NCBI RefSeq assembly: GCF_011043555.1
Contig: NZ_JAAKGS010000001.1
Location: 248,001-312,000 of the forward strand
Length of the DNA: 64,000 bases
Source of the DNA: Sphingobacterium sp. SGR-19
GTDB taxonomy: Bacteria > Bacteroidota > Bacteroidia > Sphingobacteriales > Sphingobacteriaceae
Reading direction: 5' to 3'
Part shown: in pieces, positions 17,547 through 22,295 of the stretch
How positions within the stretch are numbered: position 1 is the stretch's first letter
How the letters are laid out: each line of letters starts with the position of its first letter
Notes under the pieces: model-generated
What the model saw: only the letters and a program-made list of their open reading frames with translations
What the model was told of the DNA's origin: nothing
The model's database searches: none
Position numbers and translations under genes: made by a program

Positions 17547-17556
17547 TTGTAGAAAT

Positions 17557-17585
17557 CCAGAAGTTCCCAACTTCGGTTTTTTTTC
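17557..17585 (+). terminator. Intrinsic terminator after the BCCT gene
   Basis: GAAGTT/AACTTC stem around CCC (core 17560-17574), closed by CC/GG, followed by eight T. Eleven bases past the stop codon. Confidence 0.75.
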
Positions 17586-17653
17586 GTCTCTACAATATAT
17601 ATACATCTTCAAGAATCCCTAATTCTGGAGGTTTTTCGTAGATAACAAATTGC

Positions 17654-17661
17654 TATCTTTG
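17654..17661 (+). promoter_or_regulatory. -7 promoter element of the envelope operon
   Basis: TATCTTTG, a full match to TAnnTTTG, 19 bases before the ATG at 17681. It places the operon start downstream of the BCCT terminator. A matching -33 TTTG is not exact. Confidence 0.6.
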
Positions 17662-17680: not shown

Positions 17681-18352
17681 ATGAAAAAATATATGGGGGT
17701 ACTGCTCGTAATCGGATGCTTGACACTAAGTAGTTGTTTCGATCTGGTTGAGCAAATTGATATGGATTACAGAGGAGCAGGAACCATCAAAGCGACTTTG
17801 AATCTAAGTAAGAGTCGTACAAAGGTTGCATCACTCTTGAAAATGAAGCGGTTTAACGGGATTGATATCCCTTCGGAAACAAACATCAAACAAGAAATGG
17901 AAAAAGTAGTCCGAACATTGAAATCCACTCAAGGGATCAGCAGTGTGCAATATAATCTTGATTTCAACAATTATATCGCTACGGTATCTTGCAACTTCGA
18001 AAATATACAGGCGCTAAATGATTTCAGTAAGACGTTATCTTCTCAGTTTAAAATCCAAATTACGAGTTATAACAGCTATCGATACGATCCCGCTTCACTA
18101 ACCTTTACACGTTCCTATACCTATACGCCGAACCTAGCAAAAGAGTTTTCTAGAATCCCGAACGAAGACAAAAGTCTCTTTGCAGATGCATATTATACCA
18201 ACATTATTCGCTTTGATAAAAACATTCAGTCCCAGCGCCATAAACATGCCAAAATATCGACGAATAAACGCGCTGTTCTTTTAAAAGCGAAAGCAGTCGA
18301 TCTAATTAATGGTTCTACCAACTTAACAAATACAATCACTCTCGTAAAATAG
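17681..18352 (+). CDS. Lipoprotein, unknown function (envelope operon gene 1)
   Basis: 223 residues. The signal MKKYMGVLLVIGCLTLSSC has a lipobox with Cys19, so the mature protein is lipid-anchored. The mature part begins DLVEQIDMDYRGAGTIKATLNLS, then alternates helices and strands with no catalytic motif I recognise; LNLSKSRTKVASLL resembles the start of Bacteroidota lipoproteins of about 220 aa that precede large secreted proteins. The stop is three bases before the next ATG, so the genes are cotranscribed and likely act together. Function unknown. Confidence 0.75.
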   Translation: MKKYMGVLLVIGCLTLSSCFDLVEQIDMDYRGAGTIKATLNLSKSRTKVASLLKMKRFNGIDIPSETNIKQEMEKVVRTLKSTQGISSVQYNLDFNNYIATVSCNFENIQALNDFSKTLSSQFKIQITSYNSYRYDPASLTFTRSYTYTPNLAKEFSRIPNEDKSLFADAYYTNIIRFDKNIQSQRHKHAKISTNKRAVLLKAKAVDLINGSTNLTNTITLVK

Positions 18353-18355
18353 AAA

Positions 18356-20383
18356 ATGAAACTTCAGAAAAGTTACATCGCTACGTTATTGGGGCTATCC
18401 GTAGCCGCTACCGGTTACGGACAACAAGATCTTATCCATCAAGTACCCGAACATGCGTCATTTGTATTCCTCATCAACAACCAAGCTATCGTAAACCATA
18501 GTTCCTTCGAAAAGATAAACGAGGTATTTCAAAAACTAGGGGCTTTTGATGATATCGGCAATCAGGATGTACAGATACAAAGTATTAATGACCTCGATCT
18601 ATCTTACGATAGAAGTGCTTATATCTATAAAACAGATACTGATAGTTCTTATTATATCGGTATTCTTCTTCCATTAAAATCTGGGCATCAGATCGGTACA
18701 AATCTATTTAGCAAACTTTCTCCGTTACCTACTTCGCAGGGCTACGAACGTCGCGTCAGCACCGATGGGAAAACGCAGGTTGCGTGGAATAAACATAGCG
18801 TTCTTATATTGACCGGCGACGCGCGCCGTTATTATTTCGATACTGATTCCGTCGCGCAACGATACGGTATAGAACTACCGACTTATGATAAAGTTGTTAC
18901 ATTTCCCGAATATCAATATGACGTCGTACTGGATACGGCCGATATCGAAGATATGGCTGACGCCGTTGCAGATGAAGTCTATACAATTACAGATAGCGTC
19001 GAAACAGCATGGGAAGCTTACGATTTTGACGCCGATACGACGTATCTTGTCGATACCGTTCCCGATAACCTGAATATGGATTTTCCTCCACCTGTGCGAG
19101 AAACAGAGGAAACCCTCGTATACACCGATTACCCCGTTTATGATACGTATTCAGATTCTACGTATCTTCAGGAAATGGCTCGGAATGCGAAAAACGACTC
19201 GCTCCGTAATGCTGCTTTCGCATCATGGCTTGCAGAAGATTTTGATCGTTGCCTCCACCCTATCCAAAACGCGACTTCACATAAATTTTTAAATAAGTTT
19301 GATAAGAAAAATACCTTGGTTCATTTCTGGTCCAAAAACATGATGAGTCTTTACAGCCAGTCTATACCATCTTATTACATGCCTGCTATGCAATATGCCT
19401 TGGTTGGCCAAATGGAGAAACTCGCGTATGCATATCAAGATATTGTCCTCGATTTAGTACAAGATAAGCATACCTTAAAATTACAAGGTTCATTCGGGGT
19501 AGACAAGGAAATGGAGCGCATGATCAAACCCATATACAAAAACAAGATGAACCGTAAGTTTGCACGTTACATACCCGAAAACCATATTGGGTATATGTCG
19601 TTAAACTTCAATTCCGAAGCTTACCTAAAGAACTTCCCGCTCATGATGGAGCAGTTATATGGATCGACGATGTACTTTTCTTTTGGAGAGGTAGCGGGCA
19701 TCGTGGCGACAGCTCTAGAAATCGCCTTGGATGAGAAAGCTATTGCGAATGTTATGGGTGGCGATCATCTCCTGTTCATCAATGAAATGAAAAAAGTAGA
19801 AAAAGAATATATCGACTATCAATACGATGAAAATACCTTTGATTATAAGGAGGTAAAGAAAACAAAAGATGATTACATTCCTACCTTTTTGTGGATGTTT
19901 ACTTCAGAAGATCAACGTATCTATAAAAAGATCTTGAAACTAGGCGAATCCAAAGATAAAGTAACACAAACGGAAGATGTCTATCGTATTGTAGACAAAC
20001 CCGGTGATGAAGTCATATACGCCCTATTTAAGGATAACATTGTCTTTATAAGCAATGATGAAGAACAGCTGTCAGCCATCCGAACAAATCGCTTTCAAAC
20101 TTCAGGGGATCGACGTATTAAAAAGCAGATTTTTTCCAATACCATGACGGCAGTTACGCATCTTTCCGAAATTCCCGAAACCATCAATAAATTGGGAATT
20201 CCCGTAATAAAACGTTGGGATCACGTGGTGAATAATCTATCGGAATACGGTGATGTTACCATCACTGCTCAAGGAAACAAAAAAGGCAGGATAATCGGAG
20301 AGATGGCGGTCGATTTCCCTCAACAGGAAACGAATGCACTGCAATATTTTTTACAGGAACTGTTAAAGACGATAGAAAAATAA
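18356..20383 (+). CDS. Secreted protein with acidic insert, unknown function (operon gene 2)
   Basis: 675 residues with a signal peptide (cleavage near GYGQQ, residue 23-24). The mature start HQVPEHASFVFLINNQAIVNHSSFEKINEVF followed by SAYIYKTDTDSSYYIGILLPL resembles the layout of DUF4836-type Bacteroidota exported proteins (VP..A..V..I....L). Residues about 188-272 form an Asp/Tyr/Thr-rich, low-complexity insert. The C-terminal half has two repeats of a mixed alpha/beta pattern (GYMSLNFNSEAYLKNFPLMMEQLY; TAVTHLSEIPETINKLG). No catalytic motif is seen. Sandwiched between a lipoprotein and a membrane-anchored protein. Confidence 0.75.
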   Translation: MKLQKSYIATLLGLSVAATGYGQQDLIHQVPEHASFVFLINNQAIVNHSSFEKINEVFQKLGAFDDIGNQDVQIQSINDLDLSYDRSAYIYKTDTDSSYYIGILLPLKSGHQIGTNLFSKLSPLPTSQGYERRVSTDGKTQVAWNKHSVLILTGDARRYYFDTDSVAQRYGIELPTYDKVVTFPEYQYDVVLDTADIEDMADAVADEVYTITDSVETAWEAYDFDADTTYLVDTVPDNLNMDFPPPVRETEETLVYTDYPVYDTYSDSTYLQEMARNAKNDSLRNAAFASWLAEDFDRCLHPIQNATSHKFLNKFDKKNTLVHFWSKNMMSLYSQSIPSYYMPAMQYALVGQMEKLAYAYQDIVLDLVQDKHTLKLQGSFGVDKEMERMIKPIYKNKMNRKFARYIPENHIGYMSLNFNSEAYLKNFPLMMEQLYGSTMYFSFGEVAGIVATALEIALDEKAIANVMGGDHLLFINEMKKVEKEYIDYQYDENTFDYKEVKKTKDDYIPTFLWMFTSEDQRIYKKILKLGESKDKVTQTEDVYRIVDKPGDEVIYALFKDNIVFISNDEEQLSAIRTNRFQTSGDRRIKKQIFSNTMTAVTHLSEIPETINKLGIPVIKRWDHVVNNLSEYGDVTITAQGNKKGRIIGEMAVDFPQQETNALQYFLQELLKTIEK

Positions 20384-20395
20384 TATACGGAGTTG

Positions 20396-21676
20396 ATGAA
20401 ACGCACGTTATGGATTTTTGTGATGGTACTGGTGATAGCAGCTGGTACCATCATTGCATTATACCTATTCAGAAAAAACAGAGCACTTGACCAATATGTG
20501 CATTCCAAAAGTCAGGCTATCATATCGGTTGCATTGGACGATCTGCTGTTAGATAATCTCGACCAACTTTTTAGAAGTCGAACGCGGGATACACTCACAG
20601 ACAAAGTATCCTTGCTGGATGTAGAGAATTGGTGGAAGGCGGGAATTTCTATTCCTGCACAACTTCACTTTTTTTCATTAAGCAATGACCCATTCACGTT
20701 CTTCACGATCCAACGCATTGATAATATTGGAAAATGGGAAGCTTTTTTAAACAAATACGCGAACGACTCCGTACATGCTATAGACGACGCTCCGGAGTTA
20801 AGGTTAGCACACTTTTCTCCTTTTATGACGACGCTTCACAATGAACACTATGCGTTATTCCGTATCGGTCTTTCAAAACCGGACAGCGTGGAAGAAATGA
20901 AAGTGATATGGTCAGAAGAAAAAGATTGGGTGTATGTAAGGAATCTTCCTTTTCATTCGACAAAAAAAACAAATGCTCATCTAATCTACCGCGACATCGA
21001 CGCAACGTTTCAGTTATTTGCAGACATAGCTGAAAATCAAATTTCGTTGTCTGGCCAATGGCAACTTACTACGGAGATACCGACCGATGATATGCAGGTG
21101 CGCAAGCCGAAAGAAAATACGAACCTTTTTCTATCGTTTTGGAGTATACTACCACTCGCACAAACACCGGTTATTACTAATTTTTTGTCTGCTGTCTCGG
21201 GTATAGAAAAAACCAAACTAATAAATGACTCGTATGGGTATACAGACCTTTTTATTGGTAATAACATGATAATGCAACAAGATACTATTGTCGTGTACGA
21301 TTACGACGAAGATTTTAATAGTATAGAAAGAAAGGAAATACAGGAAATCAGTGTGCCGCTTATCGAAAGTGTCTGGAAAGGAAATGAACAACTTGCCTTT
21401 TCACTACCCAATAAATTATTCTATAAATTCAGCAAGACGTATACTGATAGCGTCATCCTGTTGTCTACCGATGAGCGGGTAGAATTTTCTCCTACTTTTG
21501 AGACGACATCCAGTCCATTCCGCGTCATGGCTGATTTCAAGAACACACCAAGTTCATGGAACAGTTCTATTGTCAAATCCTTACAGCAACATGATGTTAA
21601 AATAAATATAACTACATCGGTATTAGATAGCAATATATTAGAAATTGATGGTCATATTAGCTACACAGGGAAATAG
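20396..21676 (+). CDS. Membrane-anchored protein, unknown function (operon gene 3)
   Basis: 426 residues from ATG 20396 (the TTG at 20393 adds one residue). A single N-terminal helix, residues about 5-25 (LWIFVMVLVIAAGTIIALYLF), is followed by RKNRALDQY, so the bulk is periplasmic. After the helix, SQAIISVALDDLLLDNLDQLFRS is laid out like the start of the mature gene 2 product, and a strand segment such as LHFFSLSNDPFTFFTIQRI follows, hinting that genes 2 and 3 are distant paralogues (inference, not aligned). It is followed after 14 nt by the end of a convergent lipoprotein gene. Function unknown. Confidence 0.7.
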   Translation: MKRTLWIFVMVLVIAAGTIIALYLFRKNRALDQYVHSKSQAIISVALDDLLLDNLDQLFRSRTRDTLTDKVSLLDVENWWKAGISIPAQLHFFSLSNDPFTFFTIQRIDNIGKWEAFLNKYANDSVHAIDDAPELRLAHFSPFMTTLHNEHYALFRIGLSKPDSVEEMKVIWSEEKDWVYVRNLPFHSTKKTNAHLIYRDIDATFQLFADIAENQISLSGQWQLTTEIPTDDMQVRKPKENTNLFLSFWSILPLAQTPVITNFLSAVSGIEKTKLINDSYGYTDLFIGNNMIMQQDTIVVYDYDEDFNSIERKEIQEISVPLIESVWKGNEQLAFSLPNKLFYKFSKTYTDSVILLSTDERVEFSPTFETTSSPFRVMADFKNTPSSWNSSIVKSLQQHDVKINITTSVLDSNILEIDGHISYTGK

Positions 21677-21690
21677 TTGTCGCAAGACGT

Positions 21691-22200
21691 TTATTGATGA
21701 TCCCATGAGCCCCGGTGATAGACACCTGGCATAGCATGGTCTCCTTCGTCAAAACCAAATGCAACATATCGCACATGAGGCAGTTCCGTAAAGGAATATG
21801 TCGTAGAGACCATAAACTGTTGTGCTCCCGCTGTTCCCATTTGCTGTGTCAATACGGTGCTTTCGGGAATTTCGAGGTACACTGTATCACCAAAAGTTTC
21901 GATATACCGAACCTGTACATTTGGCCATGTGTTATTGATCATTGCTTCAATACCTTCGGCTGTTAAACTATCTGGTTGAACTTCCCGTACTTTAACAGGT
22001 CTGAAATCAAGCGTGGCAGTGTCGTATTTGTATTCCCAGAAAACCTCTGTCGGCACATAAACAAAGGGATCCTCTTTAGGTTGGTCGATGTCCTGTAATA
22101 GGGTATCCGATTGATCGCACCGTTCCCCTTCTTGCTGTGTAGATTGATTACAACCTATACCTAGTAATAATAATCCGATAAACATTGTTTTGATCCGCAT
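21691..22200 (-). CDS. Lipoprotein, unknown function
   Basis: 169 residues from the ATG at 22200, which gives a standard lipoprotein signal (MRIKTMFIGLLLLGIGC, Cys17). The longer ORF to 22275 would run through a terminator hairpin and is rejected. The mature part is acidic and strand-rich (DPFVYVPTEVFWEYKYDTATLDFRPVKVREV; ...GDTVYLEIPESTVLTQQMGTAGAQQFM; YVAFGFDEGDHAMPGVYHRGSW). GTAGAQQFM followed by a C-terminal half ending in an exposed basic-aromatic segment recalls GerMN-like or sporulation/germination-type lipoproteins, but this is only an impression. Convergent with the envelope operon. Confidence 0.65.
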   Translation of the reverse strand: MRIKTMFIGLLLLGIGCNQSTQQEGERCDQSDTLLQDIDQPKEDPFVYVPTEVFWEYKYDTATLDFRPVKVREVQPDSLTAEGIEAMINNTWPNVQVRYIETFGDTVYLEIPESTVLTQQMGTAGAQQFMVSTTYSFTELPHVRYVAFGFDEGDHAMPGVYHRGSWDHQ

Positions 22201-22254
22201 ACGAATGCCCTGCTCTTTTTTGGAATAAACATATAAAACGTGGATATGTTTATG

Positions 22255-22295
22255 AAAAATTAAAAAGGCTTCCATCGGGGAGATTGAAGCCTTTT
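22255..22295 (-). terminator. Intrinsic terminator of copy B
   Basis: Ten-bp stem AAAAGGCTTC/GAAGCCTTTT with a 13-nt loop, followed on the minus strand by TTTTTAATTTTT-like sequence. Confidence 0.75.

What the first reader, a model, noticed from the sequence alone, without database searches (positions are those of the whole stretch)
17681..21676. Three-gene envelope operon of unknown function
A lipoprotein (17681), a 675-aa secreted protein (18356) and a one-helix membrane protein (20396) are spaced by 3 and 12 nt behind one clean promoter, so they very likely act together. The mature starts of the second and third proteins look alike in layout (VP..A..V..I followed by a strand-rich Y/F-rich block), hinting at paralogy. 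Nothing catalytic is recognised. It is the best candidate in the window for an undescribed envelope system.
Basis: partly seen in the sequence, partly recalled or inferred. Interest (0 to 1): 0.5.

Follow-up and report, generated by a model that had tools for sequence, protein, structure and literature searches.

The report
Conserved three-gene envelope module
Three neighbouring genes in a Sphingobacterium-type bacterium encode a lipid-anchored protein and two related partner proteins that are kept or lost together in the genomes checked, and predicted shapes of two of them resemble known lipid-binding envelope proteins, so they may move or hold lipids between the two membranes.

Summary
Three ORFs (17681-18352, 18356-20383, 20396-21676) are spaced 3 and 12 nt behind a partly conserved promoter box. 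The paralogy hint is right: genes 2 and 3 align over 415 columns by profile comparison (E 2e-19), and both join DUF4836, a family with no paper in the library searched. Gene 1 is predicted to have the fold of mycobacterial LppM; gene 2's model matches treponemal TP0453, a proposed lipid carrier at the outer membrane. In 60 genomes of the genus, 53 have all three genes and 7 have none; a LigA tree needs six changes for the absences. In a 16-genome clade gene 3 sits elsewhere, yet all three are kept. Across the class, gene 2 lies directly behind gene 1 in 19 of 21 genomes with a strong gene 1, while other neighbours vary. Best reading: a Bacteroidota periplasmic relay or buffer for lipids, with gene 3 on the inner membrane, gene 2 soluble and gene 1 on the outer membrane. 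Linkage, paralogy and DUF4836 membership are shown; locations are inferred; the lipid role rests on fold similarity only. Repeated loss means it is accessory.

The parts
17560..17584 (+). Terminator-like hairpin plus T8 after the upstream BCCT transporter gene; probably separates the module from it
   Evidence: Sequence; RNA fold of 17550-17595 -7.4 kcal/mol, z -1.81; not listed by the pattern scan
17654..17661 (+). Bacteroidota-type -7 box TATCTTTG (consensus TAnnTTTG recalled); no clear -33 element
   Evidence: Pattern and its partial conservation upstream of orthologues
17681..18352 (+). Gene 1: lipoprotein, LppM-like fold
   Evidence: ORF; homologues A2/A4; AF2 model pLDDT 82; LppM 2nc8 Foldseek E 2.6e-6 prob 1.00, VIA Z 11.4, rmsd 3.6, 162 aligned
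17735..17737 (+). Lipobox cysteine codon (Cys19) of gene 1
   Evidence: Invariant in 27 of 27 rows and 34 of 34 rows
18356..20383 (+). Gene 2: secreted soluble DUF4836-superfamily protein, TP0453-like fold
   Evidence: ORF; 20 of 30 homologues hit PF16120 at E<=1, best 7.2e-15; hhalign to DUF4836 99.8%, 4.4e-29; AF2 pLDDT 74.6; TP0453 Z 13.6
19763..19903 (+). Gene 2 residues 470-516: long predicted beta hairpin with the Y-D-E-(F/Y) motif shared with gene 3
   Evidence: Secondary structure; alignment with gene 3; D470-P509 interval 37-38 residues in 29 of 29 gene 2 rows
20396..21676 (+). Gene 3: membrane-anchored paralogue of gene 2 (DUF4836 superfamily)
   Evidence: ORF; hhalign to gene 2 and to DUF4836 97.6%, 3e-12
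20405..20470 (+). N-terminal hydrophobic anchor of gene 3
   Evidence: Sequence; orientation inferred
21296..21358 (+). Gene 3 residues 301-321: YDYDEDFN...P motif matching the gene 2 hairpin
   Evidence: F307 invariant in 32 rows, D304 in 90% or more; alignment

Best explanation
The three genes form one envelope module of class Bacteroidia: an LppM-like lipoprotein plus two paralogous DUF4836-superfamily proteins, of which gene 2 is predicted to have a TP0453-like fold (gene 3 by homology). Proposed mechanism: gene 3, held to the inner membrane by its N-terminal helix, passes a lipid or other hydrophobic ligand to gene 2, which is soluble in the periplasm. Gene 2 hands it to, or takes it from, gene 1 on the inner face of the outer membrane. 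The hairpin motif shared by genes 2 and 3 is a candidate docking surface. No ATPase is encoded, so the module would act as a passive relay or buffer, or borrow energy from another system. Shown: layout, paralogy, family membership, co-inheritance. Predicted: the folds of genes 1 and 2. Inferred: membrane locations, lipid ligand, direction.
For: Order and spacing. Co-occurrence 53/53/53 of 60 genus genomes, the same 7 lacking all three. A LigA tree puts the 7 absences at 6 changes, all forced by starred branches, and the 16 'split' genomes in one clade that keeps all three genes at two sites. In the class sample, gene 2 lies directly downstream of gene 1 in 19 of 21 genomes with gene 1 at E<1e-20 (the window genome and one congener included). 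Of the neighbours in 27 loci, only genes 1, 2 and 3 recur in more than two families. Genes 2 and 3 are paralogous and of DUF4836. Gene 1 resembles LppM, reported to bind phosphatidylmyoinositol mannoside (passage in PMC6151718). Gene 2 resembles TP0453 (Z 13.6 against 6.6 for the next different entry), proposed to carry lipids and glycolipids in outer membrane biogenesis (passage in PMC5421087).
Against: Shared fold does not prove shared function. No sequence-level link to LppM or TP0453 was found. Foldseek's own superposition on TP0453 is poor (TM 0.20/0.47, rmsd 13.5), and VIA's has rmsd 5.0. Gene 1 also scores Z 8.0-8.6 against unrelated beta-rich proteins. The longest predicted helix of gene 2 (420-457) is hydrophobic but not amphipathic (moment 0.10, shuffle p 0.52), and residues 431-460 have pLDDT 54-59. 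Absence in 7 of 60, needing six changes, shows it is not essential, which fits poorly with bulk lipid supply. All seven absences lie outside the split clade, so joint loss could be one deletion each time. No recurrent lipid gene was found beside the module.
Confidence: 0.38

Rival explanations
1. A periplasmic chaperone or quality-control module for outer membrane proteins or lipoproteins: genes 2 and 3 hold hydrophobic polypeptides instead of lipids and gene 1 is the outer membrane receptor.
For: Same anatomy (inner membrane, soluble, outer membrane forms); hydrophobic-binding folds can hold lipopeptides too; accessory distribution.
Against: No resemblance to a known chaperone among the Pfam hits or the listed fold matches; gene 1's best fold match is a glycolipid binder.
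Confidence: 0.22
2. [quoted passage not shown] gene 1 anchors them.
For: TP0453-like fold of gene 2; the review passage reports that TP0453 inserts into artificial bilayers and raises permeability.
Against: Gene 2 has no lipid anchor of its own; its longest predicted helix is not amphipathic.
Confidence: 0.2
3. An envelope sensing module: gene 3 senses the state of genes 1 and 2 and signals inward.
For: Gene 3 is the membrane-anchored copy of the same family.
Against: Only a short N-terminal tail would lie in the cytoplasm; no gene other than the three recurs beside the module in more than two families.
Confidence: 0.08
4. Three genes that merely share a promoter, without joint function.
For: Linked genes can be lost by a single deletion, and the absent genomes all lie outside the split clade.
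Against: Order of genes 1 and 2 kept in nine families while other neighbours change; 16 genomes with gene 3 at another site keep all three.
Confidence: 0.07

Closest known systems
DUF4836 (PF16120)
   Same: Genes 2 and 3 match it by profile comparison (gene 2 over 480 columns, gene 3 over 278 with close and 414 with extended homologues); 5 of 8 individually scanned gene 2 homologues pass its cut-off
   Different: The window's own proteins do not hit the Pfam model; the two stand-alone members I read are about 500-aa proteins with a lipobox-like start, while here there are two copies, one soluble and one membrane-anchored, with an LppM-like partner
LppM (Rv2171) fold
   Same: Predicted fold of gene 1 (Foldseek prob 1.00; Z 11.4) and lipoprotein nature
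   Different: No detectable sequence similarity; different phylum and membrane type
TP0453 of Treponema pallidum
   Same: Fold match covering 231 of 247 residues of 3k8i
   Different: Gene 2 is not a lipoprotein, carries a disordered insert of about 88 residues (178-265) and has a membrane-anchored paralogue; no sequence similarity found
Mla/MCE, AsmA/TamB and Lol lipid or lipoprotein pathways (recalled)
   Same: Analogous layout of inner membrane, periplasmic and outer membrane parts
   Different: No MCE, AsmA, LolA or ABC domain among the Pfam hits of the three proteins

Membership tests
DUF4836 (PF16120) | Window protein above the Pfam cut-off | tested here: not met
   0 families for gene 2 and no DUF4836 for gene 3; own genome 0 matches
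DUF4836 (PF16120) | Homology of the gene's family to DUF4836 | tested here: met
   Gene 2: 20 of 30 homologues match at E<=1, 5 of 8 chosen ones above cut-off, hhalign 4.4e-29; gene 3: hhalign 3e-12; both against 23 DUF4836 sequences from other loci; shuffled/reversed controls at most 0.5%
LppM family | LppM fold | tested here: met
   on a predicted model
LppM family | Sequence-level relationship | tested here: not met
   No LppM hit in Pfam for 27 and 34 members (one search shows only 25 of 33 matched families) nor in PDB sequences
LppM family | Glycolipid binding | not testable with these tools
   Needs biochemistry
TP0453 | TP0453 fold | tested here: met
   on a predicted model with mean pLDDT 74.6; Foldseek TM only 0.20/0.47, VIA Z 13.6 with rmsd 5.0
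TP0453 | Lipid-anchored protein | tested here: not met
   Gene 2 has no lipobox cysteine; it may work like TP0453 but is not filed as one
TP0453 | Membrane-inserting amphipathic helices | tested here: inconclusive
   Several short helices have high moments, the longest does not
Mla/MCE, AsmA or Lol pathway | MCE, AsmA, LolA or ABC domain | tested here: not met
   No such domain among the Pfam hits of the three proteins or their homologues at E<=1

The most novel reading that the evidence does not exclude
A Bacteroidota-specific lipid relay that spans the periplasm with a new set of parts: two copies of one lipid-cradling fold (one on the inner membrane, one soluble) and an LppM-like outer membrane receptor, without MCE, AsmA or Lol proteins and without its own ATPase.
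Probability: 0.2. Interest if true: 0.75.

Novelty: new variant of a known kind. Interest (0 to 1): 0.48.

Why it matters
DUF4836 is a family for which the library searched holds no paper. Placing it in a fixed module with an LppM-like lipoprotein, with TP0453 as fold relative, turns an unknown family into a testable lipid-handling hypothesis in a phylum whose outer membrane lipid traffic is poorly known (my general knowledge). The split clade and the repeated losses give natural comparison strains.

Tried and rejected
Considered and rejected: weak Pfam hits of gene 1 (DNMK, Formin C, T2SSN; below cut-off and scattered); anti-phage defence (0 PADLOC hits at E<=0.01 for the three proteins); internal duplication of gene 2 (N-part against C-part 0.4%); gene 1 being related to genes 2 or 3 (0.6% and 4.2%; 17.9% against DUF4836 over 112 N-terminal columns that include the signal peptide, not taken as real). 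DUF3352, a look-alike that I recalled, was only searched in papers (0) and not tested by profile.

Led nowhere: a regular-expression test of whether the hairpin motif is specific to the operon proteins (28 of 29, 21 of 32 and 8 of 23) was too loose, since it picked a wrong segment in the window's own gene 2; the matching interval test on a gene 2 profile failed to align 13 of 32 gene 3 rows and 18 of 23 DUF4836 rows; a stand-alone DUF4836 protein (L147) carries a similar segment, so I make no such claim. PDB sequence searches with gene 2 and with the profiles of genes 1, 2 and 3 gave no hit or only chance hits. The sigma-70 scan gave fewer sites than shuffles (12 against 16.0) and does not cover this promoter type. 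A terminator downstream of gene 3 was not resolved (z -0.20). The two primary papers on TP0453 and LppM are not held.

Rows left out: A2 leaves out L015 and L019 (no gene 1 found in those loci) and L028 (gene 1 in two pieces). Of 33 sequences gathered for DUF4836, 10 from the trio loci were removed before the comparison, leaving 23. A4 holds four weak distant members (L136-L139). A5 and A6 hold the distant third and second genes; the comparison without them is A1 against A3. G233 and G246 entered the LigA tree with the larger of two pieces.
Full report
WHAT IS THERE. The window lies in a 4.6 Mb genome; the three named relatives found for gene 2 are Sphingobacterium species (86-89% identity). 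Three ORFs follow each other with gaps of 3 and 12 nt. Gene 1 is a lipoprotein with Cys19. The residues after the cysteine (CFDLVE) do not look like the lipoprotein export signals I recall for this phylum, so it probably faces the periplasm. Gene 2 has an ordinary signal peptide (MKLQ...GYGQQDL) and no cysteine there. Gene 3 has one N-terminal hydrophobic helix. A TATCTTTG box 20-27 nt upstream of the start codon of gene 1 is identical in 4 of 8 orthologue upstream stretches and fits the consensus in a fifth; it lacks a clear partner element, and such boxes are common in the window (75 on both strands). The upstream BCCT gene is followed by a hairpin with T8. The gene downstream (21691-22275) is convergent.

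FAMILIES. The window's proteins hit no Pfam family above cut-off. Homologues tell more: 20 of 30 gene 2 relatives match DUF4836 at E<=1, best 7.2e-15, and 5 of 8 that I scanned singly pass its cut-off. I built a DUF4836 profile from 23 sequences at other loci. Gene 2 (A1) matches it with 99.8% and E 4.4e-29, gene 3 (A3) with 97.6% and E 3e-12. Gene 2 against gene 3 with extended sets gives 99.0% and E 2.7e-18, while shuffled and reversed controls give at most 0.5%. The direct comparison without distant members is weaker: 81.9%, E 1.1e-5, over about the first 150 residues; the same pair built in the box gave 66.2%, E 5.5e-5. With distant members it spans 415 columns.

FOLDS. The gene 1 model (27 sequences, pLDDT 82, pTM 0.79) matches LppM 2nc8: Foldseek E 2.6e-6, probability 1.00, TM 0.47/0.59; VIA Z 11.4, rmsd 3.6, 162 residues, next chain 8.6. 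The gene 2 model (30 sequences, pLDDT 74.6, pTM 0.71, pLDDT under 50 at 178-265 and 337-357 besides the N-terminus) matches TP0453: Foldseek E 3.8e-4, probability 1.00, but TM only 0.20/0.47; VIA Z 13.6, rmsd 5.0, 231 residues, next different entry 6.6. These are matches of predicted models. Neither is supported by sequence. [quoted passage not shown]

CONSERVATION AS A UNIT. In 198 genomes of the class, gene 1 was found in 27, gene 2 in 25 and gene 3 in 9 at E<=0.001. Of the 21 genomes with gene 1 at E<1e-20, 19 have gene 2 directly downstream on the same strand. The exceptions are G196 (gene 2 with a third-gene-like partner elsewhere, L140) and G176. G119 has a second gene 1 copy about 0.5 kb from a contig end, without gene 2 before the end. 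In 13 of those 19 a DUF4836-like third gene follows gene 2 (in G145 after a further gene 2-like gene). Eleven such third genes from outside the genus, plus L140, were compared with profiles built without them: nine of the eleven score 83% or more against DUF4836, L115 scores 72.7%, L113 (G133) 50.0% and L140 88.1%, while five control neighbours score at most 3.2% against any of the three profiles. Six of the 19 (G225, G127, G191, G221, G135, G099) show no third gene there, G221 at a contig end. Clustering of neighbours from 27 loci found gene 2 behind gene 1 in nine families, gene 3 by direct similarity in f1, f22 and f36, and no other gene recurring in more than two families. Six genomes with weak gene 1 matches (E 2.6e-14 to 2.2e-4) hold distant lipoproteins; the four looked at have no gene 2 beside them (L136-L139).

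In 60 genomes of the genus, drawn evenly from a larger group, genes 1, 2 and 3 are each found in 53, and the same 7 genomes (G002, G003, G028, G030, G032, G035, G246) lack all three (G032 is 85% complete, the other six 97-100%). The gene 3 count is not due to cross-matches with gene 2: the weakest best match of the 53 is 1.3e-77. By the coordinates in those calls, gene 3 is next to genes 1-2 in 37 and elsewhere in 16 (in G021 gene 2 ends at a contig edge, so there the split is less sure). In 8 of the 16 a second gene 2 copy sits with the distant gene 3; in the other 8 gene 3 is alone. On a LigA tree (quick method, one gene) the 16 form one clade (support 100), and the 7 absences need 6 changes, all forced by starred branches; shuffled labels need 6.7 on average, so the absences are scattered. 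Since every absence lies outside the split clade, joint loss alone does not prove joint function. The retention of both sites in 16 of 16 split genomes and the order kept across families are the better evidence. In G234 all three genes are broken, which may be decay or sequencing error.

RANGE. In 296 genomes of the phylum, gene 1 matches of E<1e-50 are confined to the class; matches outside it are no better than 2.6e-9 (at most 9 candidates per genome were scored).

MECHANISM. The simplest reading that uses every part is a lipid-handling module with an inner membrane copy (gene 3), a soluble copy (gene 2) and an outer membrane lipoprotein (gene 1). Linkage, paralogy, family membership and co-inheritance are shown. 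The folds of genes 1 and 2 are predicted. Locations, ligand and direction are inferred. Scattered absences within one genus say that it is accessory, perhaps for a particular lipid or stress. Chaperone, permeability or scaffold, and sensor roles remain open.

LITERATURE. DUF4836: 0 papers. A search for at least two of 'phospholipid transport', 'Bacteroidota' and 'outer membrane lipid asymmetry' listed 10 of 70 papers, none naming these proteins in title or abstract start (listing only). The statement that the system is undescribed rests on these searches of openly licensed papers alone.

Noticed in passing
window 21691-22275 (-): Convergent gene downstream encodes a small lipoprotein-like protein with a weak Germane hit, E 0.002, below cut-off; it keeps its place beside the trio in L001-L003.
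   Followed up: partly
L124, L126, L129, L131 (genus genomes G033, G018, G024, G008): Second copies of gene 2, alone or with gene 3 but without gene 1; each of these genomes has only one gene 1 match.
   Followed up: partly
G234:C1:2318861-2322809 and G005:C3:1226702-1227366: All three genes are broken in G234, and gene 1 alone in G005; decay or assembly error not resolved.
   Followed up: no
L136-L139 and many f54 genomes (e.g. G402, 5 match pieces): Further distant gene 1-like lipoproteins (starts such as CITIEENYTF), some in adjacent copies, without gene 2 beside the four looked at.
   Followed up: no
L106:4741-11360: In G145 gene 1 is followed by three DUF4836-like genes (882, 807 and 504 aa open frames), an expanded form of the module.
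   Followed up: partly
L114:3119-5445 and L116:7896-10216: In family f12 gene 1 begins where a 557-559 aa gene ends (no Pfam match in L114), and a UbiA/COX3 cluster lies downstream in L114.
   Followed up: no
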